DNA from: Demequina subtropica
GTDB lineage: Bacteria; Actinomycetota; Actinomycetes; Actinomycetales; Demequinaceae
Assembly (NCBI RefSeq): GCF_000971235.1
Contig: NZ_BBMB01000002.1
Coordinates: forward strand, 62,001-126,000
Direction: 5' to 3'
Length of the DNA stretch: 64,000 nucleotides
In this document: positions 29,338 to 46,319 of the stretch, in pieces
Position numbering within the stretch: position 1 is the stretch's first letter
Layout: each line of letters begins with the position of its first letter
Notes under the pieces: generated by a model
The model's input: the letters and a program-made list of their open reading frames with translations, nothing else
Databases searched by the model: none
What the model was told of the DNA's origin: nothing
Translations under genes and position numbers: made by a program

Positions 29338-29534
29338 GCCACCACTCTAGGTGAGCGGCGCGGCGGCGGGCCGGGCGCATCGTCCTCGGTGCCTCGAGGT
29401 TCCTCGACACCGCCCCCACCCCCGTGGCTACTATCGAGGTGACGTGCCGCGCGTGCCGCCGAAACAATCCTCGGGGTGCGCGCGTTCGACCGGATGCCAG
29501 GCATTCGACCGATCCACGAGCTGAAGGGAGAACC

Positions 29535-30287
29535 GTGACGACCGAGAACGGCCCGTGGCACCTTCCCCAGGTGCCCGATGCGAGCTTCGCCGCCGCCCTG
29601 TTCGACCTGGACGGGGTGCTCACCCCGACCGCGGACGTGCACATGGACGCGTGGAGGCGCATGTTCACCGACTACTTCGAGTCGCACGGGATCACGCCCG
29701 CGTACACCGACGCCGACTACTTCGCCTACGTCGACGGCAAGCCGCGCTACGACGGCGTGCGCTCGTGCCTCGCGTCGCGCGGCGTGACGCTGCCCGACGG
29801 GACGCCGGACGATGCGGCGGGCACCGAGACCGTGTGCGGCCTGGGCAACGCGAAGAACGACATGTTCTCGGCGATCCTGCGGGAGGAGGGCGTGAAGCCC
29901 TATCCCGGCTCGGTCGCGCTGATCGACCACCTCGAGAGCGTCGGGTGCGCGATGGCCGTCGTGTCGAGCTCGCGCAATGCGCCCGCCGTGCTCGAGGCGG
30001 CGGGGCTCGCCCACCGCTTCGAGGTGGTGGTGGACGGCCAGGTGGCCGCGGACACCGGACTGCCGGGCAAGCCCGCGCCCGACACCTACCTCCGGGGCGC
30101 CGAGCTGCTCGGCGTGCCCAAGGAGCAGGCGGTGGTGCTCGAGGACGCGATGTCCGGCGTCGCCGCGGGCCGCGCGGGAGCGTTCGGCCTGGTGGTCGGC
30201 GTCGATCGCGGCGCCGGTGCTGAGGACCTGGCTGCGGGCGGCGCGGACATCGTGGTCCAGGACCTTGAGGAGCTGGTGGAGCGATGA
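29535..30287 (+). CDS. Beta-phosphoglucomutase family HAD hydrolase
   Basis: HAD-superfamily phosphotransferase of 250 residues. Motif I is FDLDGVLTPTADVH (nucleophile Asp and acid/base Asp), motif II VVSSS, and the Lys of motif III is in GKPAPDTYL. Motif IV reads VLEDAMSGVAAGRAG. A cap domain lies at about 35-110. It probably converts beta-glucose-1-phosphate, made by the next gene, to glucose-6-phosphate. GTG at 29535 follows AAGGGAG. A TACTAT box lies about 100 bases upstream (29429), and the leader contains a direct repeat TTCGACCGGAT / TTCGACCGATC. The stop overlaps the next ATG. Confidence 0.9.
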   Translation: MTTENGPWHLPQVPDASFAAALFDLDGVLTPTADVHMDAWRRMFTDYFESHGITPAYTDADYFAYVDGKPRYDGVRSCLASRGVTLPDGTPDDAAGTETVCGLGNAKNDMFSAILREEGVKPYPGSVALIDHLESVGCAMAVVSSSRNAPAVLEAAGLAHRFEVVVDGQVAADTGLPGKPAPDTYLRGAELLGVPKEQAVVLEDAMSGVAAGRAGAFGLVVGVDRGAGAEDLAAGGADIVVQDLEELVER

Positions 30288-32803
30288 AGGCGGCTCAGCG
30301 CGCGCTCGGGGACATGAGCGCGCCCGACTACGTGGACCGGTTGCGCTTCCCTGCCGATCCGTGGCGGCTCATCGAGAGCGAGTTCGACGAGGACAACCTC
30401 GGCGCGACGGAGACCCTGTTCTCGGTCGGGAACGGCTACCTGGGCCTGCGCGGCAACATCGAGGAGGGCCACGACGCACACGCGCACGGCACCTTCATCA
30501 ACGGCTTCCACGAGACGTGGCGCATCCGCCACGCCGAGGAGGCGTACGGCTTCGCGCGGACGGGCCAGACCATCGTCAACGTGCCGGATCCCAAGATCAT
30601 CCGGCTCTACGTCGACGACGAGCCGCTGCTGCTGTCGATCGCGGACCTCCCCGAGTACTCGCGCACCCTCGACATGCGCACCGGGGTGCTCACGCGCGAC
30701 CTGCTGTGGCGCACGCCCGCCGGCAACCGGGTCCGCGTGCGCTCGCGGCGCATGGTCTCGTTCCGGCAGCGCCACCTGGCGATCATGCAGTTCGAGGTGA
30801 CGCTGCTCGACCACGAGGCGCCCGTCGCGATCTCGTCGCAGCTGCTCAACCGGCAGGCCGGCGCCGACGAGTACCGCTCGAGCCCCGGCACCTCCGCGGG
30901 GTTCGACCCGCGCAAGTCGGAGGCCTTCGAGGAGCGCGTGCTCGAGCCCCGCCTGCATCGTGCCCACGACGACCACCAGCTGCTCGGGTACCAGTGCGTG
31001 AACTCGAAGATGACGCTCGCCGTCGCGATGGAGCACATGTACGAGTTCGACGGCGACGTCGAGACCGAGTCGGAGGTCCAGCCCGACTATGCGAAGTCGG
31101 TGTTCCGGTTCCGCGCCGCTCCCGGCCGGACCTTCTCGCTCACCAAGGTGGTCACGTATCACACGTCCCGGGCGGTGCCCGCGCGCGAGCTGGGCGACCG
31201 CTGCCACCGCACGCTGGCGCGCGTGCGCGAGGAGGGCGTGGAGAAGCAGTTCGCGGACCAGGAGGAGTGGCTCGCGGACTTCTGGGACAGGTCGGACGTC
31301 GAGGTCGACGGCGACGACCGCATCCAGCAGGCGGTGCGCTGGAACCTGTTCCAGCTCGCGCAGGCGGCGGCGCGCGGCGACGGCCAGGGGGTCGCGGCCA
31401 AGGGCGTCACCGGCTCCGGCTACAGCGGCCACTACTTCTGGGACACCGAGATCTACGTGGTGCCGTTCTTCGTCTACACGTCGCCGGGCATCGCGCGCAA
31501 CGCGCTGAGGTACCGCTACCGCATGCTGCCCAAGGCGATCGAGCGCGCGGGCGAGCTCGCCCAGCACGGCGCGCTGTTCCCGTGGCGCACCATCAACGGC
31601 GAGGAGGCCTCGGCGTACTACGCGGCCGGCACGGCGCAGTACCACATCGACGCCGACATCTCCTTCGCGATCGACAAGTACGTCAAGGCGACGGGGGACG
31701 ACGAGTTCCTCGCGCGCGAGGGCATCGACATCCTGGTCCAGACCGCGCGCATGTGGGCGGACCTGGGGTTCTGGCGCAACCTCCGCGGCGACGGCTCGAG
31801 CTTCCGCATCCACGGGGTCACCGGTCCCGACGAGTACACCACGGTGGTGAACGACAACCTCTACACGAACGTCATGGCGCGCTTCAACCTGCGCGCCGCC
31901 GCGGCGTCCGTGCGCAAGCTCGCCTCGATGTGGCCCGACCAGTACCGGCGCATGGTCGCCCGGCTCGGGCTCGAGGAGGCCGAGGTCATCGAGTGGGAGT
32001 CCGCCGCGGAGGCGATGGCGATCCTGTGGGACGACGACCTTGGCATCCACCCGCAGGACGCGCTGTTCCACGAGCGGGAGCTGTGGGACCTCGAGAACAC
32101 GCCGCCCGAGCAGCGGCCGCTGCTGCTGCACTTCCACCCGCTGGTGATCTACCGGTTCCAGGTGCTCAAGCAGGCGGACGTGGTGCTCGCGCTGTTCCTC
32201 CAGGGCGATCAGTTCTCCTTCGAGGAGAAGAAGGCGGACTTCGACTACTACGACCCCATCACCACGGGCGACTCGACGCTGTCGGGCGTGGTGCAGTCGA
32301 TCATGGCGGCGGAGGTCGGGTACCACGAGCTCGCGCTGCGGTACTTCTGGGACGGGCTGTTCGTCGACATCGCGGACCTGCACTCGAACACCGCGGACGG
32401 CGTGCATGTGGCCTCGGCGGGCGGCGTGTGGTCCGCGCTGGTGCACGGCTTCGGCGGCATGCGGGACTACGGCGGCGTGCTGTCCTTCGACCCGCGCCTG
32501 CCCGAGCCCTGGCCTGAGATGCGGTTCCGCCTCACCCAGAAGGGCACGCGCCTGCGCGTGACGGTGCGGCCCGAGGAGATCGCCTTCACGGTCGAGGAGG
32601 GCCAGGGCCTCACGGTCATGGTCCGGGGACAGCGCGTGAGCGTCCTGCGGGGCGAGGACGTGGTGGTGCCGCTCGCGGATCAGGGTCCACGGCTCCCGGG
32701 CGCGCCCGACGCGGCCGCCTTCCACGGGACGATGCGCTCGGACGGCTCGGTGGTGACGGCGTCGCTTCCCGCGGTGGTGGACCAGGACGTCGAGCTCGAC
32801 TAG
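30284..32803 (+). CDS. GH65 disaccharide phosphorylase (maltose/trehalose/kojibiose type)
   Basis: Inverting phosphorylase of 839 residues that would cleave an alpha-glucosyl disaccharide with phosphate to glucose and beta-glucose-1-phosphate. Family landmarks in order: LFSVGNGYLGLRGN (about 45), an N-terminal beta-sandwich, and the (alpha/alpha)6 catalytic barrel with SGHYFWDTEIYVVPFF. The general-acid Glu lies in VTGPDEYTTVVNDN, and a C-terminal beta-sheet domain follows. Coupling to a beta-phosphoglucomutase (ATGA overlap) is the standard pairing. Maltose, trehalose and kojibiose specificities cannot be separated by eye. A palindromic repeat follows the stop after five bases. Confidence 0.92.
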   Translation: MKAAQRALGDMSAPDYVDRLRFPADPWRLIESEFDEDNLGATETLFSVGNGYLGLRGNIEEGHDAHAHGTFINGFHETWRIRHAEEAYGFARTGQTIVNVPDPKIIRLYVDDEPLLLSIADLPEYSRTLDMRTGVLTRDLLWRTPAGNRVRVRSRRMVSFRQRHLAIMQFEVTLLDHEAPVAISSQLLNRQAGADEYRSSPGTSAGFDPRKSEAFEERVLEPRLHRAHDDHQLLGYQCVNSKMTLAVAMEHMYEFDGDVETESEVQPDYAKSVFRFRAAPGRTFSLTKVVTYHTSRAVPARELGDRCHRTLARVREEGVEKQFADQEEWLADFWDRSDVEVDGDDRIQQAVRWNLFQLAQAAARGDGQGVAAKGVTGSGYSGHYFWDTEIYVVPFFVYTSPGIARNALRYRYRMLPKAIERAGELAQHGALFPWRTINGEEASAYYAAGTAQYHIDADISFAIDKYVKATGDDEFLAREGIDILVQTARMWADLGFWRNLRGDGSSFRIHGVTGPDEYTTVVNDNLYTNVMARFNLRAAAASVRKLASMWPDQYRRMVARLGLEEAEVIEWESAAEAMAILWDDDLGIHPQDALFHERELWDLENTPPEQRPLLLHFHPLVIYRFQVLKQADVVLALFLQGDQFSFEEKKADFDYYDPITTGDSTLSGVVQSIMAAEVGYHELALRYFWDGLFVDIADLHSNTADGVHVASAGGVWSALVHGFGGMRDYGGVLSFDPRLPEPWPEMRFRLTQKGTRLRVTVRPEEIAFTVEEGQGLTVMVRGQRVSVLRGEDVVVPLADQGPRLPGAPDAAAFHGTMRSDGSVVTASLPAVVDQDVELD

Positions 32804-32916: not shown

Positions 32917-33669
32917 CTAACGGTGGGTGACGCGCGCGAGGAACTCGCGGGTCTCGGGCTGCTGCGGGTCTCCGAAGATCTGCTCGGGGGTGCCCACCTC
33001 GAGCGGGCGGCCGCTGTGCATGAAGACGATGCGGTCGGCCACCGAGCGCGCGAAGCTCATCTCGTGCGTCGCCATGAGCATGGTGGAGCCCTGCTCCTTG
33101 AGGTCGCGGACCAGGTCGAGCACCTCGCCCACGAGCATCGGGTCGAGCGCCGACGTGATCTCGTCGAGCAGGAGCAGCTCGGGCTCGGTCATGATCGCGC
33201 GCACGATCGCCACGCGCTGCTGCTGGCCGCCCGAGAGCCGGTCCGGGTAGTCGTCGACCTTCTCGCCCAGCCCGAACTTCTCGAGCAGGCCGATCGCGCG
33301 GTCGCGCGCGACGTCGGGCTCGATGCCGTGCACCTTGCGCGCCGCGAGCGTGACGTTGTCGATCACGCGCATGTGCGGGAACAGGTTGAAGTGCTGGAAG
33401 ACCACGCCGATGCGCGCGCGCACCTTGTCGACGTCCACCGCGGGGTCGGTGATGTCATCGCCCGAGAGCAGGATGCGGCCGTCGTCGACGCGCTCGATCA
33501 GGTTGATCGTGCGCATGAGGGTGGACTTGCCGGAGCCGGAGGCGCCGATCACCACGACCACCTCGTGGCTGGCGATCTCGAGGTCCACGCCCTTGAGGAC
33601 GTGGTTGTCGCCGAAGAGCTTGTGGACGCCGTCCAGCTTGAGCACGGTCGCGCGGTCGGCGGCGGTCAT
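32917..33669 (-). CDS. Polar amino-acid ABC transporter ATP-binding protein
   Basis: Nucleotide-binding subunit (250 residues) with Walker A GASGSGKST, Q-loop VFQHFNLFPHM, signature LSGGQQQR, Walker B LLLLDEITSALDP and the switch His in ATHEMSF. The sequence is of the GlnQ/HisP type. Its ATG overlaps the stop of the permease. This is the third gene of a binding protein-permease-ATPase operon read leftward. Confidence 0.95.
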   Translation of the reverse strand: MTAADRATVLKLDGVHKLFGDNHVLKGVDLEIASHEVVVVIGASGSGKSTLMRTINLIERVDDGRILLSGDDITDPAVDVDKVRARIGVVFQHFNLFPHMRVIDNVTLAARKVHGIEPDVARDRAIGLLEKFGLGEKVDDYPDRLSGGQQQRVAIVRAIMTEPELLLLDEITSALDPMLVGEVLDLVRDLKEQGSTMLMATHEMSFARSVADRIVFMHSGRPLEVGTPEQIFGDPQQPETREFLARVTHR

Positions 33670-34544
33670 ACGGTCCCTCCCTGCTGCTCGCGCGCGGCCA
33701 TGCGGGCGGACACCGCGTCGGTGAGGCGGATCATCGGGAAGCTCATCGCCACGAACAGCAGGCCCGCGACCACGTACGGCGTGAAGTTGTAGGTCTGCGC
33801 CTGCGCGATCTGCGCGGCGCGGACGGCGTCGACGGCGCCGAGCACCGAGATGAGGCCCACGTCCTTCTGCATCGACACGAAGTCGTTCATGAGCGCGGGG
33901 ACCACCTTGCGCAGGGCCTGCGGGATCACCACCATGCGCAGCGTCTGCGCGTGCGAGAGGCCCAGCGACCGGGCCGCGATGCGCTGCGACGGGTGGACGG
34001 CCTCCATGCCGGCGCGGAGCACCTCGGCGACGTAGGCCGAGTAGCACAGCGAGATCGCGATGGTGCCGAGCACCGCGACGGGGATGCGGACCTCGGTGTT
34101 GAGGCCGGGGATCCCGAATCCCACCAGGTACAGCACGATCAGCACGGGCAGGCCGCGGAACAGGTCGGTGTAGCCGGTGGCGAGCGCGCGCAGGGGGAAG
34201 AACACAGGGCCGCGCAGCGACCGCATCGTCGCCAGCAGCGTCGCGACCACCGCGACCGCGATGGTCGCGAAGAACAGCACGCGGATGTTGAGCCAGAGGC
34301 CCTCGAGGATCTTGGGGAACGAGCTCTTGGCGATCTCGACGTTGAAGAACGTGTTCCTGACCGTCTCCCAGTCGGGCGAGCTGACGACGAGCCAGCCGGC
34401 GACGGCCGCGAACGCGACCGTCGAGACGAGCGCGACAAGGACCGAACGGCGGGACGCGCGGCGGCGCTGCAGCCTGCGGTCGAGCTCGAGCTCGCTGGGC
34501 TGCCAGGCCTCCATCGTCGTCACCGCCGTCCGGTCCTGCGTCAC
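33666..34544 (-). CDS. Polar amino-acid ABC transporter permease
   Basis: A 292-residue HisM/GlnP-type permease with an N-terminal extension of about 30 residues and a first helix (about 35-53). The core is five-helical, and the EAA loop reads AARSLGLSHAQTLRMVVIPQALRKVVPAL. A single permease gene suggests a homodimer. GTG at 34544 lies three bases after the binding-protein stop. Confidence 0.94.
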   Translation of the reverse strand: MTQDRTAVTTMEAWQPSELELDRRLQRRRASRRSVLVALVSTVAFAAVAGWLVVSSPDWETVRNTFFNVEIAKSSFPKILEGLWLNIRVLFFATIAVAVVATLLATMRSLRGPVFFPLRALATGYTDLFRGLPVLIVLYLVGFGIPGLNTEVRIPVAVLGTIAISLCYSAYVAEVLRAGMEAVHPSQRIAARSLGLSHAQTLRMVVIPQALRKVVPALMNDFVSMQKDVGLISVLGAVDAVRAAQIAQAQTYNFTPYVVAGLLFVAMSFPMIRLTDAVSARMAAREQQGGTV

Positions 34545-34547
34545 GTC

Positions 34548-35426
34548 TTAGCCGAGGACCGGGACGTCGACGGCCTCGGACAGCCACTCGGACTCGAGCG
34601 ACGTGAGGACGCCGTTGTCGCGCAGGGCGTCGACCGCCTCGGTGACGGGCTCGGTCAGCGCCGAGTCCTTCGGGAGGACGATGCCGAACTCGTCGCCGCC
34701 CTCGGAGCCGGCGAACTGGCCCAGGATGGCGCCGTTGTCGACCTCGACGTAGGCCGAGTAGAAGGCGCCCGGGAGGTCGGTCACGAACGCGTCGATCTGG
34801 CCGGCGTTGAGCGCCGCCACCACGTCGGCGACCGAGTTGTAGACCGCGAGGTCGTCGTCGCCGAGCTTCTCGACGGCGACGTCGTAGGACGTGGTGCCGA
34901 CCGCGACGCCCACCTTGGCGCCCGCGAGGTCCGCGATGGTGGTCGCGCCCGCGAAGGGCGAGTCCCCGGTCGCGACGACGGCCTGCGTGGTCGTGTAGTA
35001 CGGGCTCGAGAAGTCGACGGCCTGCTTGCGCTCGTCGGTGATCGAGAACTGCTGGATGTTGAGGTCCCAGTCCTTGGCGCCGGGTGCGATCGCCTCGTCG
35101 AAGCCGGTGCGGACCCACACGACGTCGGAGTCGTCGAAGCCGAGCTCCTCTGCCACGGCGTACGCCACGGCCGCCTCGAAGCCCTCGCCGGTCTCGGGGG
35201 CGTCGCCCACGACCCACGGCTCGTAGGCGGGCTCGCCGGTCGCGATGGTGAGCTTGCCCTCGGTGACGGTCTCGAGCGCGGTCTCGACCGGCGCGGTCGC
35301 GGTGGCGTCCGCGGACGAAGCGGCGGTGGGCTCGGCCTCGGGGGACGAGGAGGAGCAGCCCGCCAGCATCATCGCCGAGAAGGCGGTCGTCGCGAACAGG
35401 CCTGCGCGCACACGTGTGCTGATCAT
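34548..35426 (-). CDS. Amino-acid ABC transporter substrate-binding lipoprotein
   Basis: SBP family 3 lipoprotein of 292 residues, with signal peptide and lipobox LAGC and then a Ser/Ala linker. The mature domain contains TIATGEPAYEPWVV, WDLNIQQFSITDERKQAVDFSSPYY and GVAVGTTSYDVA, the bilobal polar amino-acid binder pattern. The ATG at 35426 is chosen over one 12 bases upstream because GAGGAG sits at the right distance only for the inner start. A minus-strand TAGACT box is at 35496-35491. Between it and the start lies a run of eight G (35452-35459) next to five A. Confidence 0.92.
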   Translation of the reverse strand: MISTRVRAGLFATTAFSAMMLAGCSSSSPEAEPTAASSADATATAPVETALETVTEGKLTIATGEPAYEPWVVGDAPETGEGFEAAVAYAVAEELGFDDSDVVWVRTGFDEAIAPGAKDWDLNIQQFSITDERKQAVDFSSPYYTTTQAVVATGDSPFAGATTIADLAGAKVGVAVGTTSYDVAVEKLGDDDLAVYNSVADVVAALNAGQIDAFVTDLPGAFYSAYVEVDNGAILGQFAGSEGGDEFGIVLPKDSALTEPVTEAVDALRDNGVLTSLESEWLSEAVDVPVLG

Positions 35427-35520
35427 GATGCTCCTCATCAGAGTCCAAAAAGGGGGGGGATGGTGGGGCCGTCGTCGGCCACGCGCGCACAGTCTACTCG
35501 CGCGCCGGGCGGCTCCTGTC

Positions 35521-35578
35521 GGCGTCGCGCCTCAGGCGAGCCTCCAGTCGGCGTCGCGCCTCAGGCGAGCCTCCAGTC
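35521..35578. repeat. 29-bp perfect tandem duplication covering the end of the cupin gene
   Basis: 35521-35549 and 35550-35578 are identical. Each copy holds, on the minus strand, the codons DWRLA and a TGA, so the end and stop codon of the cupin gene are present twice. The distal copy is outside the reading frame. Confidence 0.9.
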
Positions 35579-35986
35579 GGCGAAGTCGAAGCCGGGCGAG
35601 ACCGCGCAGCTCACGAGGACCTCCTGGTCGCCACCCAGCCGCGCCGCCTGCCACGTGCCGGCGGGCACCAGGACATGCGCGACCTGTCCGGCCGCGAGGT
35701 CCGGCCCGAGCGTGACGGTCGTGGGCGCATCGTCCGGCGCGTCGCCGCTGCCCCCCAGGCTGAGCTCGAGCGTGCCGGGGCCGTGCCACAGCCAGACCTC
35801 GTCCGACGTGACGACGTGCCACGCGCTCTCCTCGCCGGGGGTGAGGAGGTAGTGGATGATCGTCGCCGCGGGGCGCGCGCCGCCCGCGGTCTCGACGGGC
35901 ACCTGGGACGTGTAGTAGCGGCGGAACCAGCCGCCCTCGGGATGGGGCTCGAGGCCCAGCAGGGTCGCGGTGGCAGGGGTGGTCAT
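35561..35986 (-). CDS. Cupin, DUF985 family
   Basis: A 141-residue single-domain cupin of the DUF985 type: LGLEPHPEGGWFRRYYTS at the start, ATIIHYLLTPGEESAWHVVTSDEVWLWHGPG in the middle with candidate metal/ligand His and Glu, and AGTWQAARLGGDQEVLVSCAVSPGFDFADWRLA at the end. Function not established. Its ATG overlaps the stop of the amidohydrolase, so it is the last gene of the leftward SAH-related operon. The stop lies in a tandem duplication. Confidence 0.85.
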   Translation of the reverse strand: MTTPATATLLGLEPHPEGGWFRRYYTSQVPVETAGGARPAATIIHYLLTPGEESAWHVVTSDEVWLWHGPGTLELSLGGSGDAPDDAPTTVTLGPDLAAGQVAHVLVPAGTWQAARLGGDQEVLVSCAVSPGFDFADWRLA

Positions 35987-37287
35987 GCGAGGGACGCTCC
36001 GGTCTGGTCGGTGAAGGCGGGCGTGGCGTGGCGCAGGCGGCCGCCGATGACGGTGGCGGCGGCGTGGCCGTCGCCGGCGCGCGCGAGGTCGTCGATCGCC
36101 GTCGCGAGGTCGCCCACGGGCACGTCGAGGAAGGCGAGGTCGGCCCGGGCTCCCACCGCGAGGTGACCCGTGCGGTCGGGACCCATGTGCAGACCCATCG
36201 CGCGCGCGCCGCCCAGCGTGACGGCCGCGAGCAGGCGCTCCGCGAGGTCGGGCTGGGCGTAGCCCTGGCCACGGGCCATCGAGTAGAGCGCGGCGACGTC
36301 CCCCATGGGGTCCAAGGACGGCGCGCTGGAGAGGGAGTCGGTGCCTACCGAGATGGGGCTGCCCTCGGTGAGGTACGCGGCGACGGGAGGCTCGTCGAGG
36401 CCGATCACCTCGTTCGAGCGCGGGCAGAGCGCCACCGACGTGCCGCGGGCGCGGAGGATCGCCCGGTCCTTGGCGCTCAGGTAGACGCCGTGCGCGATGT
36501 GGCAGTCGGGTCCGAGCACGCCCAGGTGATCTACGTAGTCCGTCGCCGAGGTGCCGTAGCCCGCGGAGCGCAGCTCGGACAGCGAGCCCAGGTTCTTCGC
36601 CTGCCACGGCTCGTCCACCGTGTGCGAGAACTCGCGCTCGATCGCGGACTCGCCCAGGTGGATGTGGATCCGGCTGCCGCGCTCGCGGACGATGTCGGGG
36701 ATGTCGAGCAGCGGCACGATCTCAAGCGAGTACGGCGCGTGAGGGCTCAGCCCGGTGCCGGGCGGGGTGGGGAGCGCATCGAGCGCCGCCTCGACCTGCG
36801 CGCGACCGCGCTCGCGCCAGTCGGCGTTGGTCCAGTCCATGACCTCCCAGTAGGTGATGCCGTGGAGGCCCGCGTCGGCCAACGCGTACATGGCCTCGAG
36901 GTCGGTCACGATGTCCGCGACGGACGTGGTGCCGGACTCGACCGCCATGCGCGCGCCTGCGGCGGCGGCGGCGCGCCAGTCCTGGCCGCGCTCGTAGACG
37001 GGGTTGAAGGCCGTCGCCCAGTCCTCGAAGCCCTGGTAGCGGCCCTGGCCCACCTCGGCCATGCCCGTGTACTGCAGGTGCGTGTGGGCGTTGATGAGGC
37101 CCGGCATCAGCACGCCGTCCCACCGGTGCTCGGTGAAGGCGTGGCCGCTCTCGCGCAGCGCCGCGACCACCCACGCGCGCTCGCCCACGTGGACGATGCG
37201 CCGGCCACGGACGGCGATCGCGCCGTCAAGCACGGGGGGCGCGGTCATGGGCAGCACCAGGGCGGCGCTGTAGACGATCGTGCTCAT
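35983..37287 (-). CDS. Amidohydrolase, probable adenosyl-compound deaminase (SAH/MTA deaminase type)
   Basis: A 434-residue TrzA/AtzA-group metal hydrolase. Metal and catalytic residues are seen in GLINAHTHLQY (HxH), IHIHLGESAIE (His and the proton-shuttling Glu), IAHGVYLS and SVGTDSLSS (Asp). MTA/SAH deaminases and aminofutalosine deaminases belong to this group and deaminate the adenine ring to hypoxanthine. Overlap by ATGA with the SAH-hydrolase-like gene upstream and proximity to luxS-mtn favour SAH or related adenosyl waste as substrate. An aminofutalosine (menaquinone) role is the main alternative. Confidence 0.8.
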   Translation of the reverse strand: MSTIVYSAALVLPMTAPPVLDGAIAVRGRRIVHVGERAWVVAALRESGHAFTEHRWDGVLMPGLINAHTHLQYTGMAEVGQGRYQGFEDWATAFNPVYERGQDWRAAAAAGARMAVESGTTSVADIVTDLEAMYALADAGLHGITYWEVMDWTNADWRERGRAQVEAALDALPTPPGTGLSPHAPYSLEIVPLLDIPDIVRERGSRIHIHLGESAIEREFSHTVDEPWQAKNLGSLSELRSAGYGTSATDYVDHLGVLGPDCHIAHGVYLSAKDRAILRARGTSVALCPRSNEVIGLDEPPVAAYLTEGSPISVGTDSLSSAPSLDPMGDVAALYSMARGQGYAQPDLAERLLAAVTLGGARAMGLHMGPDRTGHLAVGARADLAFLDVPVGDLATAIDDLARAGDGHAAATVIGGRLRHATPAFTDQTGASLA

Positions 37288-38759
37288 GCGTCGATGTCCC
37301 GGTAGCGGCGGGACCGCCAGTCCGCGTCCGCCGCGGACGATGCGGGCGCCGCGTCGAGCGCGACGCCCCGCACGTGGGCGGCCGTCGCCGCGACATGGCC
37401 CACCGCATCGTCCGGGAGGGCGTGGACGCCGATGCCGGGGCGCTCCTCGACCAGGCTTCGGATCGCCGCGAGCTGGGTCGCGAAGCTGAGGTCCATGATC
37501 TCGATGGGGTTGCCCTCGGCTGCGGTGACGTTGATGCAGCCGCCGCGGTCCAGGACGAGCGTGCCGCGCTCGACGTCCACGTCGAGGTGTGGCACGGGCG
37601 CGCCGGCCACCACGACGGGCTGCAGCGAGGACTCGTCGAGGTCCACCTCGCCGGGCACGCCGCCCGCGACGGCGACGATGCCCGCGAGCTCGAGCAGCTC
37701 GCGCGTCACGGTGCCCGCGACGCCGGTGCAGGACACCACGAGCGCGCCGTGCGCGAGGTCCTCCGCGCGACCGACCTCGTAGCCGTCGTGCGTGGCGAGC
37801 AGTGCGCGCAGGGGGTCGATCTCCGCGACGCTCACGTGCGCGCCTAGCGCCGTGAGGTGCGCCGCGACGCCCACGCCCACCGGCCCGTAGCCGATCACCA
37901 GCACGGGCAGGTCGCGCACCGTGGCGTCGACGTGCTCGATGAGGTCCGCGATCGCGAGCACGCAGCTCTGGCCGGTGCCGTAGCGGTTGTCGAAGCCGGT
38001 CTTGGTCGCGGCGTCGTTCACTGCGACCACGGGCGTGCGCAGCAGGCCCGCCGCGTGCAACGCCCGCAGGGGGGTGAGCCCCGAGGTGGTCTCCTCGGTC
38101 ACGCCGATCCAGCCCTCGATCAGCTCGGGCGCGGCCTCGTGCGCGAGGCGCACCAGGTGGCTGCCGTCGTCGACCACCACGTCGAAGCCGCGGCGCAGCC
38201 ACGCGAGGGCGGCCTCGCGCTCCGCGGTCCCGGACAGGTCGGGGTCGGCGTCCACGGGCACGCCGCGCTCGCGGAGCGCCTGGGCGACCGCGGGGTCCGT
38301 CTCGTCCGGATGCGCGTAGACCGCGACGTCGGCGCCGGCGTCCGCGAGCAGCAGGGCGAGGTTGGCGGTCTTGGGCTCGAGCGTCATGGAGACGCCGATG
38401 CGCAGCCCTCGCACGGTCCCGGCCTCGCGGATCTCCGTGGCGAGCGCATTGGACACGGGCATGTGCGCGCGGGCGAAGTCGAGCCGGCCCGCGGCGTCCC
38501 CCCGCGGCGCCAGGGGAGCGCCGCCCAGCGACAGCGCGGCATTGTCGCCGTCGATCTCGATGTCGAGCACATCGGGCCCGGTCGCATCGTCCTCCACGAG
38601 CCGCGCGCCGAGCGCGCGGGCCATGCCGGCGACGGCGAGGGCGGTGGCGGTGTCCTCGGCCTCGGCGGAGACGCGGATGGGCCGTCCTGCGATGAGGAGG
38701 TTGGTGTCGCGGGCGAAGCGGCGGAGGATCCGCTCGGCCGTCGCGTGCGGGTCGGTCAT
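37284..38759 (-). CDS. Divergent adenosylhomocysteinase-family protein (possible S-inosylhomocysteine hydrolase)
   Basis: NAD-dependent hydrolase family protein of 491 residues. Residues about 95-470 follow SAH hydrolase: [18 protein letters not shown] (197-201), EETTSG (222-227), [11 protein letters not shown] (248-258, keeping the catalytic Lys and Asp) and the NAD-binding GYGPVGVG (290-297), then [14 protein letters not shown]. Two things differ. There is a ~90-residue N-terminal extension, and the substrate segment that normally reads LHMT is [10 protein letters not shown] (about 123-132), lacking the conserved His. The C-terminal KPDHYRY-type tail is also absent. TAGACT lies 7 nt before the ATG (leaderless). 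It is first gene of the operon with the amidohydrolase and cupin, divergent from luxS. Confidence 0.82.
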
Positions 38760-38831
38760 GGGCAGAAGTCTAGAAGCGCATCGCTTGCCGCATTACGCTT
38801 GGTGAGCCGTCGACCAGCCGAAGGAACCCAC

Positions 38832-39302
38832 GTGACCGAGCCCCGCAAGATGAACGTCGAGTCGTTCAACCTCGACCACACCGCGGTGGCCGCACCGTTC
38901 ATCCGCCTCGCGGACCGCAAGGAGCTGCCGCACGGCGACGTGCTCACCAAGTTCGACGTGCGCTTCACGCAGCCGAACGTCGCGCACCTGGAGATGGACG
39001 CGGTGCACTCGATCGAGCACTCGTTCGCGGAGTGCGTGCGCGACCACAGCGCGCAGGTGATCGACTTCGGCCCCATGGGCTGCCAGACGGGCTTCTACCT
39101 CATCATGTCGGGCGATCACGCTCCCGAGGACATCCGCGACCTGGTGCTCGCCACCATGGCCCAGATGCTCGAGCTGACCGAGGTCCCCGCCGCCAACGAG
39201 GTGCAGTGCGGTTGGGGCGCGCACCACTCCCTGGACGCGATGCGTGCCGCGGTCGAGGAGTTCACCGCGCACGCCGACGAGCTGCTCGCGGTGATGCGCT
39301 GA
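38832..39302 (+). CDS. luxS: S-ribosylhomocysteine lyase
   Basis: Iron enzyme that splits S-ribosylhomocysteine into homocysteine and DPD, the precursor of AI-2. The 156-residue protein has the metal-binding HSIEH (His59, Glu62, His63) and catalytic Cys84 in GCQTGFY. The third ligand Cys126 is in [14 protein letters not shown] lies 7 nt before the GTG at 38832, and a possible -10 (TACGCT) is at 38794. The next gene, encoding the enzyme that supplies its substrate, starts on the last base of the stop codon. Confidence 0.95.
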
Positions 39303-40015
39303 TGCCCGGCGCGATGCCCGCGGTCCTGGTCGCGATGGCGGAGGAGGCGCAGGGCTTCCTCGACCTCTCGGACACCCACGAGGGCCTCAACGCGCCGGAC
39401 GATGCGTGGATCGTCACGGCCGGCGACGTCACCTACCTGCTGGTGGTCACCGGCATCGGCATGGTGTCCGCCGCGCGCGCGGCGACGCTGGTCTCGCACG
39501 GGGTCATCGGCGGGATCACCGCCACCACCATCGTCTCCGCGGGCACGTGCGGCGGCATCCCCGGCCACGTGAGCGTCGGCGACCTGGTGGCGCCGTGCTG
39601 CTCGCTCGACTGGTCCGCCGACTCGACGTCGATCGGCTACGAGTACGGGCAGGTGCCCGGTCATGCGGAGTTCCACGAGTCCGACGAGGCGCTGGTCGAC
39701 CTCGCCGTCGAGATGGGCGCCAAGAAGGGCTACCTCGCCTCCGCGAACGCATTCGCGGTGGCCGAGACGGTCGACCTCATCCGCGAGCGGTTCCCCAAGG
39801 TCATCGCGACGGACATGGAGTCCGCGGCGGTGTCGCAGGTCGCGGCCGCGTCCGGCATCCCGTTCCTGTCGCTGCGCTGCGTGTCCGATATGTGCCAGGG
39901 CGACGGGGGAGTCGAGTTCGACGAGCACCTGGACGATGCCGCGGCCCGGTCCGCGAAGGCGACGCTGGATCTGCTCGCCCGCGTCGCCTCGGAGGCCGCG
40001 CCCGCCGCGTCCTGA
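39302..40015 (+). CDS. mtn: 5'-methylthioadenosine/S-adenosylhomocysteine nucleosidase
   Basis: Releases adenine from SAH or MTA. The 237-residue phosphorylase-fold protein shows VLVAMAEEAQGFL (catalytic Glu region), TGIGMVSAARA, SAGTCGGIPGHVSVGDLV and ATDMESAAVSQVAA (the DMExAA substrate motif). Overlap with luxS (TGATG) makes a two-step SAH to homocysteine pathway in one operon. Futalosine hydrolase is a related family but does not fit the luxS context. Confidence 0.92.
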   Translation: MPGAMPAVLVAMAEEAQGFLDLSDTHEGLNAPDDAWIVTAGDVTYLLVVTGIGMVSAARAATLVSHGVIGGITATTIVSAGTCGGIPGHVSVGDLVAPCCSLDWSADSTSIGYEYGQVPGHAEFHESDEALVDLAVEMGAKKGYLASANAFAVAETVDLIRERFPKVIATDMESAAVSQVAAASGIPFLSLRCVSDMCQGDGGVEFDEHLDDAAARSAKATLDLLARVASEAAPAAS

Positions 40016-40198: not shown

Positions 40199-43100
40199 GT
40201 GACCGCTCAGCCGCTCGCCCCCCTGCTCGGAGACTGGGCGGACTCGCGCCTCGGGGACGTCACGAGCATCCAGGCACCCGGCGCCGCCGCGGCGCCGCTC
40301 ATCGCTCGTGCGGCGCTGACCGACGACGCCCCGATCGTGGCCGTCGCGGCGACGTCCGGCGACGCCGAGCAGCTCGCGCGGGCGCTCACGGCCTACCTGG
40401 ACCCGGCGGAGGTCACCACGTTCCCCAGCTGGGAGACGCTGCCGCATGAGCGCCTCAGCCCGCGCTCCGACACCGTCGCGCGCCGCCTCGCGACGCTGCG
40501 ACGCGTGGTCCACCCCGCCGAGGCCGCCGCGGAGTCGGGGCTTCCCGTCCCGCGCGTGGTGGTCGCGCCGCTGCGCGCGATGCTCCAGCCGCTCGTCCCC
40601 GGTCTGGCCGACCTCGAGCCGGTGCTCGTGAGGAAGGGCGACGAGCGCGACCTCACCGACCTCACCGAGGCGCTCGCGGCGGCCGCGTACACGCGCGTCG
40701 ACATGGTCGAGCGGCGCGGCGAGTTCGCGGTCCGCGGCGGGATCGTCGACGTCTTCCCGCCCACCGACCCGCACCCGATCCGCGTCGAGTTCTTCGGCGA
40801 CGAGGTCGAGAGCCTGCGTTTCTTCTCCGTCGCGGACCAGCGTTCGCTGGACTCCGTGGGTCGCCTGTGGGCGCCGCCGTGCCGCGAGCTGCTGCTCACC
40901 GAGGACGTGCGTGCCCGCGCCGCGCAGCTCGCCGAGCAGATCCCCGCGGCGGGCGACATGCTCGCCCGCATCGCCGACGGCCACGCCGTCGAGGGCATGG
41001 AGTCGCTCATCCCCGTGCTGCTCACGCGCCTCACGCCCGTGACGGACGTGCTGCCGGTGGGGACGCGCATCGTCGCCCTCGAGCCCGAGCGCCTCGCCCG
41101 CCGCGCCGAGGATCTCCAGCACACCGCGCAGGAGTTCCTGCAGGCCGCGTGGGTCAGCGCCGCCGCCGGGGCGGACTCGCCCATCGAGGCGCACGGTTCT
41201 GAGAGCCACGGCGGGTTCCTGGGGCTCGAGGATGTCGAGGTCTCCGCCGCCGAGCGTGGCCTGGGCTGGACCGCGATCGGGCCGTTCGGCACCGTGGCGG
41301 CCGAGGTGCCGGGCATCGCGGAGATCGAGGACTTCCGCGGCAGGCTCGCGGCGGTGCTCGACCTCATCAACGCGCGCCTCTCGGAGGGCTGGCGCGTGGT
41401 CATCGCCGCAGCAGGCACGGGCTCCGCCCACCGCATCGTCGAGCAGTGCGCCGAGCGCTCGATCCCGGCGCGGGCCGCGTCGCACGGGGACGATGCGGAC
41501 GCCGGGGTCGTCGCGGTGCTCGCGGGCGTCGACGCCCGCGGGTTCCAGGTGCCGGACGCAAGGCTCCTGGTGCTGCACGAGAGCGACCTCACAGGTCGAT
41601 CCGCGTCCGCCGCCGGTCCGAAGGTGAAGGTGCCCAGCCGTCGCCGCACGGCGGTGGACCCGCTGCAGCTGCGCCCCGGCGACTTCGTGGTCCACGAGAC
41701 CCACGGCGTCGGACGCTTCGTCGAGCTCACCAAGCGCACCGTGCGCGGCATCGAGCGCGAGTACCTGGTGATCGAGTATGCGGCGTCCAAGCGCGGCGGG
41801 CCCGCGGACAGGCTCTCCGTCCCCACGGACCAGCTGGACCTCATCACCAAGTACGTGGGCGGCGAGGCGCCGAGCGTCAACAAGATGGGCGGCGCCGACT
41901 GGTCGAAGACCAAGGGTCGCGCGCGCAAGGCGGTCAAGGAGATCGCCGCGGAGCTCATCCGGCTCTACAGCGCGCGCATGGCCACCAAGGGCCGCGAGTT
42001 CGGCCCCGACACCCCGTGGCAGCGCGAGCTCGAGGAGTCCTTCGCGTACGTCGAGACCCCCGACCAGCTCTCCACCATCGACGAGGTCAAGGCGGACATG
42101 GAGAAGGCGGTCCCGATGGACCGCCTGGTCTGCGGCGACGTGGGCTTCGGCAAGACCGAGATCGCCGTGCGTGCCGCCTTCAAGGCCATCCAGGACGGCA
42201 CCCAGGTCGCGATCCTGTGCCCCACCACGCTGCTGGTGAAGCAGCACGTCGACACCTTCTCCGAGCGCTTCGCGCAGTTCCCCGTCAAGGTCGCGGCGCT
42301 GTCGCGCTTCCAGACGGACAAGGAGGCCAAGGAGATCATCGACCAGCTCGGCAAGGGCGAGATCGACCTGGTGGTCGGCACGCACCGCCTCATCACCGGC
42401 TCGGTGCGCTTCAAGAAGCTCGGCCTCATCATCATCGACGAGGAGCAGCGCTTCGGCGTCGAGCACAAGGAGACGCTCAAGGCCATGCGCACCGACGTCG
42501 ACGTGCTCGCGATGTCCGCGACCCCGATCCCGCGCACTCTCGAGATGGCGGTCACCGGCATCCGTGAGATGTCGACGCTGGCCACCCCGCCCGAGGAGCG
42601 CCACCCGATCCTGACGTATGTGGGACCGCACGAGGACGCCCAGGTGATCGCCGCGATCCGCCGCGAGCTGCTGCGGGACGGCCAGGTGTTCTACATCCAC
42701 AACTCGGTCAAGACCATCACGCGCGCCGCGCTCAAGATCGGCGAGCTGGTGCCCGAGGCGCGCGTCGCGGTCGCGCACGGCCAGATGAGCGAGAAGCAGC
42801 TCGAGCAGGTGATCGTCGACTACTACGACAAGAAGTACGACGTCCTCGTCTGCACCACCATCGTCGAGACCGGCCTGGACATCTCCAACGCCAACACCCT
42901 GCTCGTCGAGCGGGCCGACACGTTCGGCCTGTCCCAGCTCCACCAGCTCCGCGGGCGCGTGGGCCGCGGCCGCGAGCGGGCCTACGCGTACTTCCTCTAC
43001 CCGCCGGAGCGCACGCTCACGGAGACCGCGCACGACCGCCTCCAGACCATCGCGGCGAACACCGACCTGGGCTCCGGCATGGCGGTCGCGATGAAGGACC

Positions 43101-43687
43101 TCGAGATCCGCGGCGCGGGCAACCTCCTGGGCGCCGAGCAGTCGGGCCACATCGAGGGCGTGGGCTTCGACCTCTACATCCGCATGGTGGGGGAGGCCGT
43201 CGCGGGCTTCCGCGGCGAGGAGGTCGAGGACCGCGCGCCGATGACGGTCGACCTTCCCATCGACGCGCACATCCCCACGTCCTACATCGAGCACGAGCGG
43301 CTGCGCCTCGAGGCCTACCGCAAGGTCGCCGACGCGGACACGGCGGACGTGCTCGACCAGGTCGAGGAGGAGCTCGACGACCGCTACGGCACGCTGCCCG
43401 AGCCGGTCGCGAACCTCCTCGCGGTCGCGCGCCTGCGGCTCGAGCTGCGTGCCGCGGGCGTCCACGACGTGGTGGCCCAGGGCAAGTACATCCGCTTCAG
43501 CCCGGTCGAGCTCCCGGACTCCGCCGCGATGCGCCTGAACCGCCTCTACCCGGGCACGCTCATCAAGCCGGCGGTGCGGCAGATCCTGGTGCCCGCGCCC
43601 ATGACGGCGCGCCTCGGCGGCAAGCCCGTCGAGGGCCTCCCGGTGCTGGACTGGGTGCGCGATCTGCTCGCGGCGATCCGACACTAG
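40199..43687 (+). CDS. mfd: Transcription-repair coupling factor
   Basis: ATP-dependent translocase that removes stalled RNA polymerase and recruits UvrA. The 1162-residue protein has the UvrB-homology N-terminal part (SWETLPHERLSP, VRGGIVDVFPPTDPHPIRVEFFGDEVESLRFF) and the RNA-polymerase-interaction domain around residue 490 (RPGDFVVHETHGVGRFVEL). Helicase motifs follow: Walker A GDVGFGKTE (about 647), DEEQ box (about 748) and SATPIPRTLEMA. The TRCF domain is C-terminal. GTG at 40199 follows GGAGG. The TAG stop doubles as the start of the next gene's -10 box. Confidence 0.97.
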   Translation: MTAQPLAPLLGDWADSRLGDVTSIQAPGAAAAPLIARAALTDDAPIVAVAATSGDAEQLARALTAYLDPAEVTTFPSWETLPHERLSPRSDTVARRLATLRRVVHPAEAAAESGLPVPRVVVAPLRAMLQPLVPGLADLEPVLVRKGDERDLTDLTEALAAAAYTRVDMVERRGEFAVRGGIVDVFPPTDPHPIRVEFFGDEVESLRFFSVADQRSLDSVGRLWAPPCRELLLTEDVRARAAQLAEQIPAAGDMLARIADGHAVEGMESLIPVLLTRLTPVTDVLPVGTRIVALEPERLARRAEDLQHTAQEFLQAAWVSAAAGADSPIEAHGSESHGGFLGLEDVEVSAAERGLGWTAIGPFGTVAAEVPGIAEIEDFRGRLAAVLDLINARLSEGWRVVIAAAGTGSAHRIVEQCAERSIPARAASHGDDADAGVVAVLAGVDARGFQVPDARLLVLHESDLTGRSASAAGPKVKVPSRRRTAVDPLQLRPGDFVVHETHGVGRFVELTKRTVRGIEREYLVIEYAASKRGGPADRLSVPTDQLDLITKYVGGEAPSVNKMGGADWSKTKGRARKAVKEIAAELIRLYSARMATKGREFGPDTPWQRELEESFAYVETPDQLSTIDEVKADMEKAVPMDRLVCGDVGFGKTEIAVRAAFKAIQDGTQVAILCPTTLLVKQHVDTFSERFAQFPVKVAALSRFQTDKEAKEIIDQLGKGEIDLVVGTHRLITGSVRFKKLGLIIIDEEQRFGVEHKETLKAMRTDVDVLAMSATPIPRTLEMAVTGIREMSTLATPPEERHPILTYVGPHEDAQVIAAIRRELLRDGQVFYIHNSVKTITRAALKIGELVPEARVAVAHGQMSEKQLEQVIVDYYDKKYDVLVCTTIVETGLDISNANTLLVERADTFGLSQLHQLRGRVGRGRERAYAYFLYPPERTLTETAHDRLQTIAANTDLGSGMAVAMKDLEIRGAGNLLGAEQSGHIEGVGFDLYIRMVGEAVAGFRGEEVEDRAPMTVDLPIDAHIPTSYIEHERLRLEAYRKVADADTADVLDQVEEELDDRYGTLPEPVANLLAVARLRLELRAAGVHDVVAQGKYIRFSPVELPDSAAMRLNRLYPGTLIKPAVRQILVPAPMTARLGGKPVEGLPVLDWVRDLLAAIRH

Positions 43688-43690
43688 GAT
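43685..43690 (+). promoter_or_regulatory. -10 box built on the mfd stop codon
   Basis: TAGGAT begins with the TAG stop of mfd and ends 7 nt before the ATG at 43698, mirroring the metG promoter. Confidence 0.55.
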
Positions 43691-43697
43691 GGCGGCC

Positions 43698-44301
43698 ATG
43701 CGTTCGTCTCGCCTCGCCGTCCTCGCCGCATCGTCCCTCCTGCTCGCCGGCTGCGCCGTGCCGGGCCAGGACGGCGCCCCGGGCGTCGCCCTGCAGACGG
43801 ACGATGCGACCGTCACCACCGCCGACCTCGACGCGATCGCCGCGGCGTGGGAGGAGGACAGCGATGGCGCGGTGGTCCCCGACCGCCAGGCGCTCGCGAC
43901 CGCCGAGCTGCTCGGGCCCGGCCTCCTCGCGGCGGCCGCCGAGAACGGCGCCGTGATCAACGAGGGCGTGGCCCGGACCTTCGCGACCGAGTGGCTGCGG
44001 TACGTCGGCATCGAGGACCCCGAGCCCAGCGACGCCGTGATCGCATCCACCGAGAACGTGCTCGCGCTCTACGTCGCCACCTACGCCGATACGAACGGCA
44101 CCATCCTCGAGGCGGCGGTGGCCGAGCTCCCCGAGTCGACGGTGATCTCGCCCCGCCTGGGAGAGCTGGACGCCGACACGCTGGTGACGTCCGCGCAGGG
44201 CGCCGTCGGCGACGCCGAGGTGATGGGCCTGGGCAACTACTCGTTCACCGCGTTCATCGACGTCAACGGCTTCACCGCGGGAACCGGCTCCTGGGCGGCG
44301 C

Positions 44302-44309
<8 letters not shown>
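43698..44309 (+). CDS. SurA N-terminal-like lipoprotein
   Basis: A 203-residue predicted lipoprotein with signal MRSSRLAVLAASSLLLAGC and lipobox Cys. The mature part has helices (TTADLDAIAAAWEEDSDG..., GPGLLAAAAENGAVINEGVARTFATEWLRYVG) like the chaperone-type SurA N-domain, and no rotamase domain. Lipoproteins of this kind commonly sit between mfd and mazG in actinobacteria. The ATG at 43698 is chosen over one nine bases upstream because of its spacing from TAGGAT. It overlaps mazG by eight bases. Confidence 0.75.

Positions 44310-46319
<2,010 letters not shown>

What the first reader, a model, noticed from the sequence alone, without database searches (positions are those of the whole stretch)
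35561..40015. SAH locus with two apparent disposal routes: deaminase plus SAHH-like on one side, Mtn-LuxS on the other
luxS and mtn form a standard SAH to homocysteine operon. Directly divergent is a leaderless operon of a SAH-hydrolase-family gene, an amidohydrolase of the SAH/MTA-deaminase group and a DUF985 cupin, all joined by 4-nt overlaps. The SAHH-like protein keeps the catalytic Lys, Asp and NAD motifs but lacks the conserved LHMT His and the usual C-terminal tail, and has an extra N-terminal ~90 residues. In Methanocaldococcus a deaminase and an SAHH homologue act in series as SAH to S-inosylhomocysteine to inosine plus homocysteine. A bacterial version beside LuxS/Mtn would be unusual.
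Basis: partly seen in the sequence, partly recalled or inferred. Interest (0 to 1): 0.72.

Follow-up and report, generated by a model that had tools for sequence, protein, structure and literature searches.

The report
Importer operon with altered SAH-hydrolase relative
Beside ordinary genes for recycling a methylation by-product, these bacteria carry a separate operon that probably imports a modified nucleoside and breaks it down with a relative of the recycling enzyme SAH hydrolase that has lost the residues handling the usual tail of the molecule.

Summary
The window is from Demequina (Actinomycetota). The SAHH-like protein belongs to a clade (23 of 23 rows, 100/100) apart from SAH and S-inosylhomocysteine (SIH) hydrolases. 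The clade keeps the NAD site, ribose-oxidising residues and E-x-K hypoxanthine signature, but has lost all three conserved His and other 5'-side (homocysteine, water) residues. An amidohydrolase of one family accompanies it at every clade locus examined; in one genome both share a frame. Importers differ between lineages (amino-acid ABC, ECF, sugar-type ABC). Two distant operons carry it in tandem with a His-bearing SIH-hydrolase-type paralogue. In Demequina the pair occurs with LuxS or with canonical SAHH, which never overlap (10 and 34 of 47; neither 3), so it is not the housekeeping SAH route. Best reading: import and salvage, deaminating an adenosine derivative, then oxidising and eliminating its 5' group. 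Substrate unknown.

The parts
37284..38759 (-). SAHH-superfamily protein of a distinct clade (491 aa): extra N-terminal domain, xLEPK motif (E128, K130), D198, E222, T224, K253, D257, NAD motif; H55/H301/H353 equivalents are T126, G367, N417
35983..37287 (-). amidohydrolase (434 aa), deaminase type: HxH, HxxE, H, D metal/catalytic residues; nearest solved folds are MTA/SAH/adenosine deaminases, isocytosine deaminase and atrazine hydrolases at 19-25% identity
35561..35986 (-). DUF985 / Cupin_5 protein (141 aa)
34548..35438 (-). substrate-binding protein of the amino-acid type (SBP_bac_3); R137, aligned to the Arg of the ITxERK motif, is in 45 of 45 and D221 in 39 of 45 aligned sequences (window plus 44 loci, one genome twice)
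33666..34544 (-). ABC permease, amino-acid type (BPD_transp_1)
32917..33669 (-). ABC ATPase, amino-acid type; ATG overlaps the permease stop by 4 nt
38767..38772 (-). conserved -10-like box (TAGACT) 7 nt before the ATG: leaderless start of the SAHH-like operon
   Evidence: coordinates from the sequence
38832..39302 (+). luxS, S-ribosylhomocysteine lyase (HxxEH and Cys motifs seen by eye; motifs recalled)
39302..40015 (+). mtn, MTA/SAH nucleosidase

Best explanation
The operon is an import-and-salvage module, not a housekeeping SAH route. The ABC importer (or, in relatives, an ECF or sugar-type importer) brings in an adenosine derivative with a substituent on C5'; in the Demequina type the binding protein suggests that the ligand carries an amino-acid head, as SAH- or SAM-like compounds do. 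The amidohydrolase deaminates the adenine to hypoxanthine. The SAHH-like protein binds the 6-oxopurine through E128/K130, oxidises the 3'-OH with bound NAD (K253, D257, E222/T224), takes the 4'-H (D198) and expels the 5' substituent. Because the residues that bind homocysteine and activate water at C5' are gone, either the leaving group is not homocysteine (for example a sulfonium, which needs no acid) or water addition is left to another protein, such as the His-bearing paralogue found in two operons. Shown: gene order, conservation, clade, residue losses and retentions, importer differences. Inferred: deamination, import of this ligand, elimination chemistry. Unknown: the substrate and the role of the cupin.
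For: Six-gene order recurs across several families: at 19 non-Demequina loci of the order, amidohydrolase adjacent in 19, SBP and permease in 17, cupin in 16. The same 34 of 47 family genomes hold both enzymes. One genome has both in a single 998-codon frame (L035). ECF genes take the importer's place in Rathayibacter, and a sugar-type ABC with nucleoside hydrolase and LacI regulator on plasmid NZ_CP084754.1. Clade monophyletic, 23 of 23 rows, 100/100. 46 of 46 proteins of the new type lack the three His that 75 of 75 SAHH/SIHH-type proteins keep (one genome counted twice, L085's N-terminus read as a separate piece). Positions conserved in 39 of 39 others but in none of 23 clade members: H126, N364, H367, H417; N150 in at most 2. 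The literature assigns His55 and His301 to the 5'-OH/water and Asn80 to the homocysteine channel (PMC4647836, passages), and ExK to hypoxanthine (PMC10978960, passages). SBP Arg 45 of 45.
Against: No substrate or activity is shown. An amino-acid SBP is not shared by the ECF and sugar-ABC versions, so the importers may serve something else, or the amino-acid head may be a wrong guess; the second SBP residue (D221) is missing in 6 of 45, among them Bifidobacterium reuteri. Other residues could take over the His roles. The Microbacterium-type loci (L038, L041, L086) have no amino-acid or ECF importer beside the pair; what looks by eye like a sugar-type binding protein lies beyond the nucleoside hydrolase and was not scanned. 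The amidohydrolase's substrate is open: no curated family cut-off is reached. In the tree, L083 and L162B sit on long branches.
Confidence: 0.5

Rival explanations
1. One reading: a true S-inosylhomocysteine pathway. The amidohydrolase turns SAH into SIH and the SAHH-like protein cleaves SIH to inosine and homocysteine, with other residues replacing the lost His.
For: ExK hypoxanthine signature kept throughout the clade; best solved relatives are T. maritima SAHH and inosine-bound archaeal enzymes; amidohydrolase adjacent in 19 of 19 non-Demequina loci and in the same 34 family genomes; luxS near the operon in all 10 luxS genomes, one of them on a separate contig that holds the operon's other end.
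Against: Loss of all three His and N364 in 23 of 23 and of N150 in at least 21 of 23; a His-bearing SIH-hydrolase-type paralogue sits in tandem in two operons; redundant with SAHH or LuxS in all 34 genomes of the family that have the pair.
Confidence: 0.25
2. The protein does another NAD-dependent reaction on a 6-oxopurine nucleoside without 5' chemistry: 3'-oxidation or epimerisation, or oxidation followed by loss of the base from C1' (a nucleosidase in the manner of glycosidase family 4; that comparison is recalled).
For: Ribose-redox and base-binding residues kept while the 5' side is gone. A Rubrobacter lineage lost the H55 and H301 equivalents outside this clade in the tree, and 3 of its 4 genes examined sit with an ECF importer whose S component matches, or resembles one that matches, the QueT (queuosine precursor) family; the fourth, on a plasmid, does not.
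Against: D198, the 4'-H base, is kept throughout the clade, which fits 5' elimination; nucleoside hydrolases occur beside some members, which would make a second nucleosidase redundant.
Confidence: 0.13
3. A partner or regulatory subunit: an enzymatically weak SAHH relative that assembles with a catalytic SAHH-type protein or with the deaminase.
For: Tandem occurrence with a His-bearing paralogue in two operons and the shared frame with the amidohydrolase in one genome.
Against: In the window genome PF05221 finds no other SAHH-family protein to partner; the checked redox residues are kept in all 46 proteins of the type.
Confidence: 0.08

Closest known systems
S-inosyl-L-homocysteine hydrolase with DadD/MTA-SAH deaminase (Methanocaldococcus jannaschii, Thermotoga maritima; from passages of PMC10978960)
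   Same: ExK hypoxanthine-binding residues, NAD and ribose-redox residues, short C-terminus, a deaminase-type partner
   Different: the three conserved His and the N150 and N364 equivalents lost; operon with an importer; extra N-terminal domain in 14 of 23 members; amidohydrolase only 21-26% identical to 13 amidohydrolases near SAHH/SIHH-type genes
Canonical S-adenosylhomocysteine hydrolase (HxTxE/Q)
   Same: fold (best PDB matches) and redox residues
   Different: base-binding motif, all three His, C-terminal tail; occurs alongside it in 24 family genomes
Mtn-LuxS SAH detoxification
   Same: present as an ordinary pair, divergent from the operon
   Different: unrelated proteins; within this family LuxS was found only in genomes without a canonical SAHH match
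MTA/SAH and adenosine deaminases (4gbd, 4f0r, TM0936)
   Same: fold and metal/catalytic residues
   Different: 20-25% identity; no curated family reached; substrate untested

Membership tests
S-inosylhomocysteine hydrolase (SIHH) | E and K of the HxExK base-binding motif | tested here: met
   E128 and K130; 45 of 45 readable proteins of the type, L085 in a separate piece
S-inosylhomocysteine hydrolase (SIHH) | the His of the HxExK motif (His55) | tested here: not met
   T126 in the window; T, V, I, F or M in the type, against His in 75 of 75 SAHH/SIHH-type proteins
S-inosylhomocysteine hydrolase (SIHH) | gate His-Phe (His301-Phe302) | tested here: not met
   G367 followed by V, I or A in 46 of 46; ROS_B has G-G and L162B M-G there
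S-inosylhomocysteine hydrolase (SIHH) | cleaves SIH to inosine and homocysteine | not testable with these tools
   needs an assay
S-inosylhomocysteine hydrolase (SIHH) | SAH deaminase partner | tested here: inconclusive
   a deaminase-type amidohydrolase is adjacent in 19 of 19; its substrate is unknown
Canonical SAH hydrolase | HxTxE/Q motif and curated NCBIfam cut-off | tested here: not met
   TLEPK; all five adenosylhomocysteinase models listed are below cut-off
SAHH superfamily | fold with NAD domain and catalytic Lys/Asp | tested here: met
   Pfam over cut-off; model pLDDT 91.8 with TM 0.74/0.90 to T. maritima SAHH
Aminofutalosine deaminase (amidohydrolase) | futalosine menaquinone pathway in the genome | tested here: not met
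   no PF02621 match, MenD present
MTA/SAH deaminase (amidohydrolase) | curated family cut-off | tested here: not met
   52.4 bits against 779 (MTA/SAH deaminase) and 100.6 against 522 (5'-deoxyadenosine deaminase); fold similar
LuxS and Mtn | curated model over cut-off | tested here: met
   LuxS 183.3 over 158; Mtn 99.1 over 73.8

The most novel reading that the evidence does not exclude
A third functional class of the SAHH superfamily: an NAD-dependent nucleoside 5'-lyase that does not add water, acting after a dedicated deaminase on imported SAM-type (sulfonium) or other nucleoside amino acids, with a His-bearing paralogue doing the hydration in some lineages. This would be a bacterial route for scavenging extracellular methyl-cycle nucleosides.
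Probability: 0.25. Interest if true: 0.75.

Novelty: new variant of a known kind. Interest (0 to 1): 0.56.

Why it matters
The review and paper seen here read SAHH as two classes by base specificity, HxTxE/Q or HxExK. Here is a third, well-separated clade that keeps the second class's base-binding residues but has lost the 5' machinery, and that is found with importers and an amidohydrolase in Bifidobacterium, Microbacteriaceae and Demequina. The one annotated member seen is simply named adenosylhomocysteinase, a name that would mislead metabolic models. It makes a clear question testable: what does SAHH chemistry do without its water-activating His, and which nucleosides do these bacteria scavenge?

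Tried and rejected
Rejected: a second housekeeping SAH route, because the pair is kept with SAHH or LuxS in all 34 family genomes that have it. Rejected for this genome: aminofutalosine deamination. No sign of a riboswitch: no Rfam match at gathering score in 11 clade loci, and only two tRNAs in the window. No sign of a defence system: no PADLOC match for the three enzymes. Consensus promoter and terminator scans gave nothing above chance: 0 promoters, 1 terminator-like site against 0.6 expected. Considered and left weak: luxS placement as proof of a link. It lies beside the operon in the 10 luxS genomes, 7 upstream and 3 downstream, one of these (G013) on a separate contig with the operon's other end, but on the operon tree luxS and SAHH alternate with at least 5 changes, so an old shared location repeatedly lost explains it as well (quick tree, no bootstrap). 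A phylum search with the plasmid protein was too loose: 235 of 396 genomes matched; of 8 stretches fetched only L162 showed the new type's GNP motif. Plasmid searches found no second operon of the XES5 type: the amidohydrolase matched that one record only, and no other record listed matched the SAHH-like protein above 41% (25 rows at most listed). Literature searches (titles and abstract starts seen) showed no description of this operon in the held library; PMC4524176 is not held.

Errors corrected on the way: my first reading of family f4 as Actinomyces was wrong; members of it group with Bifidobacterium reuteri, so it is probably Bifidobacteriaceae. The ATPase was scanned with 7 extra residues before its real ATG. 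My overlap filter may have hidden the ATPase in some loci, so no ATPase count is given. Rows dropped or cut: L047 and L062 (odd frame length); L035 cut to its first 508 residues; four Rubrobacter-type proteins set aside; L085's N-terminal piece lies in another frame and was aligned as misread. L058 and L080 are the same genome and both are counted.
Full report
WHAT IS THERE. The minus-strand operon runs on: SAHH-like 38759-37284, amidohydrolase 37287-35983, DUF985 cupin 35986-35561, then after 122 nt an SBP_bac_3 binding protein 35438-34548, a permease 34544-33666 and an ATPase 33669-32917, with 4-nt overlaps at three of the five junctions. The ABC genes match amino-acid-type importers (glutamine, arginine, cystine, ectoine) without reaching the cut-off of any of those equivalogs among the rows shown. 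The start is leaderless: a TANNNT box sits 6-8 nt before the ATG in 33 of 33 Demequina loci, one of them under a start codon 6 nt inside the one the script picked; outside them in 9 of 20.

GENUS-LEVEL PATTERN. Among 47 genomes of the family, the SAHH-like gene and the amidohydrolase occur in the same 34 (one of them, G011, is a fragmented 50%-complete assembly). A canonical SAHH match (the second, 32-43%-identical match class) occurs in 34, LuxS in 10 and neither in 3 (G037, G045, G046), with no overlap. Five of the 34 canonical genes were fetched and all five have HMTxQ; that of G011 is a fragment with stops. All 10 LuxS genomes have the pair, and 24 of the 34 SAHH genomes have it. So the pair is additional to whichever SAH route is present. 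The window genome has no canonical SAHH: PF05221 finds only the window's own gene. luxS lies just upstream of the operon in 7 genomes and at its downstream end in 3; in G013 that end is on a separate contig. On a tree of the two enzymes luxS and SAHH alternate with at least 5 changes.

BEYOND THE GENUS. In 396 genomes of the order, 49 have the protein at E up to 1e-45, 19 of them outside Demequina. At those 19 loci the amidohydrolase is adjacent in 19, SBP and permease in 17, the cupin in 16. In G271 (L035) both enzymes lie in one open frame of 998 codons. Named carriers are Curtobacterium, Canibacter, Rathayibacter, Microbacterium, Bifidobacterium reuteri and a Clostridiales bin; all 9 clade loci (L079-L087) hold the amidohydrolase, in Rathayibacter 3 kb away. 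Importers differ. Rathayibacter tanaceti has ECF genes with a PF07155 S component between the SAHH-like gene and the amidohydrolase. Plasmid NZ_CP084754.1, labelled Roseateles sp. XES5 and marked unverified, has a LacI regulator, two tandem SAHH-family genes, a sugar-type ABC importer, the amidohydrolase (about 42-46% identical to the others) and a nucleoside hydrolase. L038, L041 and L086 have a nucleoside-hydrolase-like gene convergent next door, identified by Pfam in L038 and by resemblance of the first residues in the other two.

THE PROTEIN. In 122 aligned proteins, 46 belong to the new type and 75 to SAHH or SIHH types, with one Rubrobacter protein in between (plasmid proteins). All 75 keep three His (positions 126, 367, 417 in window numbering; His55, His301, His353 of the mouse enzyme, mapped by motif). 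None of the 46 does: position 126 is T, V, I, F or M (L085's N-terminal piece lies in another frame and reads VLEPK), 367 is G and 417 is N. E128, K130, D198, E222, K253 and D257 are kept. In a curated comparison (23 clade members against 39 others, four Rubrobacter-type proteins set aside), H126, N364, H367 and H417 are in 39 of 39 others and in no clade member, and N150 is in 39 of 39 others and at most 2 of 23. A 66-row tree puts the 23 clade members on one side of one branch with 100/100 support and in all 200 bootstrap trees; L083 and L162B are long branches and 16 rows have an odd letter make-up. The tree is rooted for drawing only, so whether the clade arose from SIH hydrolases is not settled. 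The predicted fold is an SAHH (pLDDT 91.8); its best PDB matches are T. maritima and inosine-bound archaeal enzymes.

WHAT THE LOSSES MEAN. Passages of PMC4647836 say that in mouse SAHH the 2'-OH is held by Glu156 and Asp190, the 3'-OH by Thr157 and Lys186, the 5'-OH by His55, Asp131 and His301. His55 activates the water that adds at C5', His301 stabilises the intermediate, Cys79 and Asn80 line the homocysteine channel, and His353 binds the base through its main chain. Passages of PMC10978960 say that HxExK enzymes prefer SIH, with Glu at N1 and Lys at O6 of hypoxanthine, and that the motif's His matters for catalysis. So the clade keeps base, ribose and redox functions and has lost the 5'-side set. 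That predicts a 6-oxopurine nucleoside whose 5' group or fate differs from homocysteine plus water. It does not prove loss of activity.

THE TANDEM PAIR. In NZ_CP084754.1 the first gene (HLEAK, GHH, GHP) is of SIH-hydrolase type and the second (VLEPK, GGG, GNP) is of the new type. In L162, a distant actinobacterial genome, the same two types stand in tandem with a 4-nt overlap, the amidohydrolase behind them and an amino-acid-type ABC importer in front. The two His-bearing partners are sisters (100/99), the two new-type members are sisters (99/94) and split off first within the clade as drawn. This suggests an old division of labour, with only the new type kept in Demequina and its relatives.

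THE AMIDOHYDROLASE. It has the deaminase metal and catalytic residues and folds like MTA/SAH and adenosine deaminases (top matches 4dzh, 3lnp, 4f0r, 4dyk and 4gbd at 22-25% identity), but no curated family is reached. It shares 21-26% identity with 13 amidohydrolases found near SAHH/SIHH-type genes; such neighbours occur at 15 of the 71 non-clade loci, 14 of them with an ExK-type gene. Aminofutalosine is unlikely in this genome.

THE BINDING PROTEIN. R137, aligned with the Arg of the ITxERK motif of amino-acid-binding proteins, is in 45 of 45 aligned sequences; D221 is in 39 of 45. That these two hold the carboxylate and the amino group is recalled from solved amino-acid-binding proteins, not tested. 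The ligand of the ABC type therefore probably carries a carboxylate, less surely an amino group.

VERDICT. I file it as a new variant within the SAHH superfamily, working like an SAHH up to elimination (inferred), not as an SIH hydrolase. Papers: PMC10978960, PMC4647836, PMC13406329 and PMC11130926 were seen as passages only; all others as search listings. No description of the operon was seen in the searches.

Noticed in passing
Demequina and family genomes G000-G046: LuxS and canonical SAHH matches exclude each other exactly: 10 with LuxS, 34 with SAHH, 3 with neither, none with both of 47, with at least 5 switches on the operon tree of 33 of them.
   Followed up: partly
L088 3466-5565; L164; L168; L160: Rubrobacter-type genomes carry an SAHH relative (PIEAK, GGV, GHP where read in full) without the His55 and His301 equivalents, outside the new clade in the tree; three of four lie behind ECF genes with a QueT-like S component and no amidohydrolase match, the plasmid copy does not.
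   Followed up: partly
L053 8108-8971 (-): In a probable Bifidobacteriaceae genome an Mtn-like nucleosidase gene lies between cupin and binding protein, on the opposite strand.
   Followed up: no
window N-terminus of 37284-38759 (residues 1-90): Extra N-terminal domain with a conserved TNxxxAG-like motif, found in 14 of the 23 clade members and not in the plasmid and Microbacterium types; function unknown.
   Followed up: no
L085 98-1395: The Rathayibacter tanaceti SAHH-like gene is split by a frame change near 330-343, either an assembly error or a broken gene.
   Followed up: no
window 29424-32803 and 40199-46319: The operon sits between HAD/GH65 genes and an mfd, surA-like, mazG, enolase block (names by eye), and mfd flanks it in most Demequina loci.
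   Followed up: no
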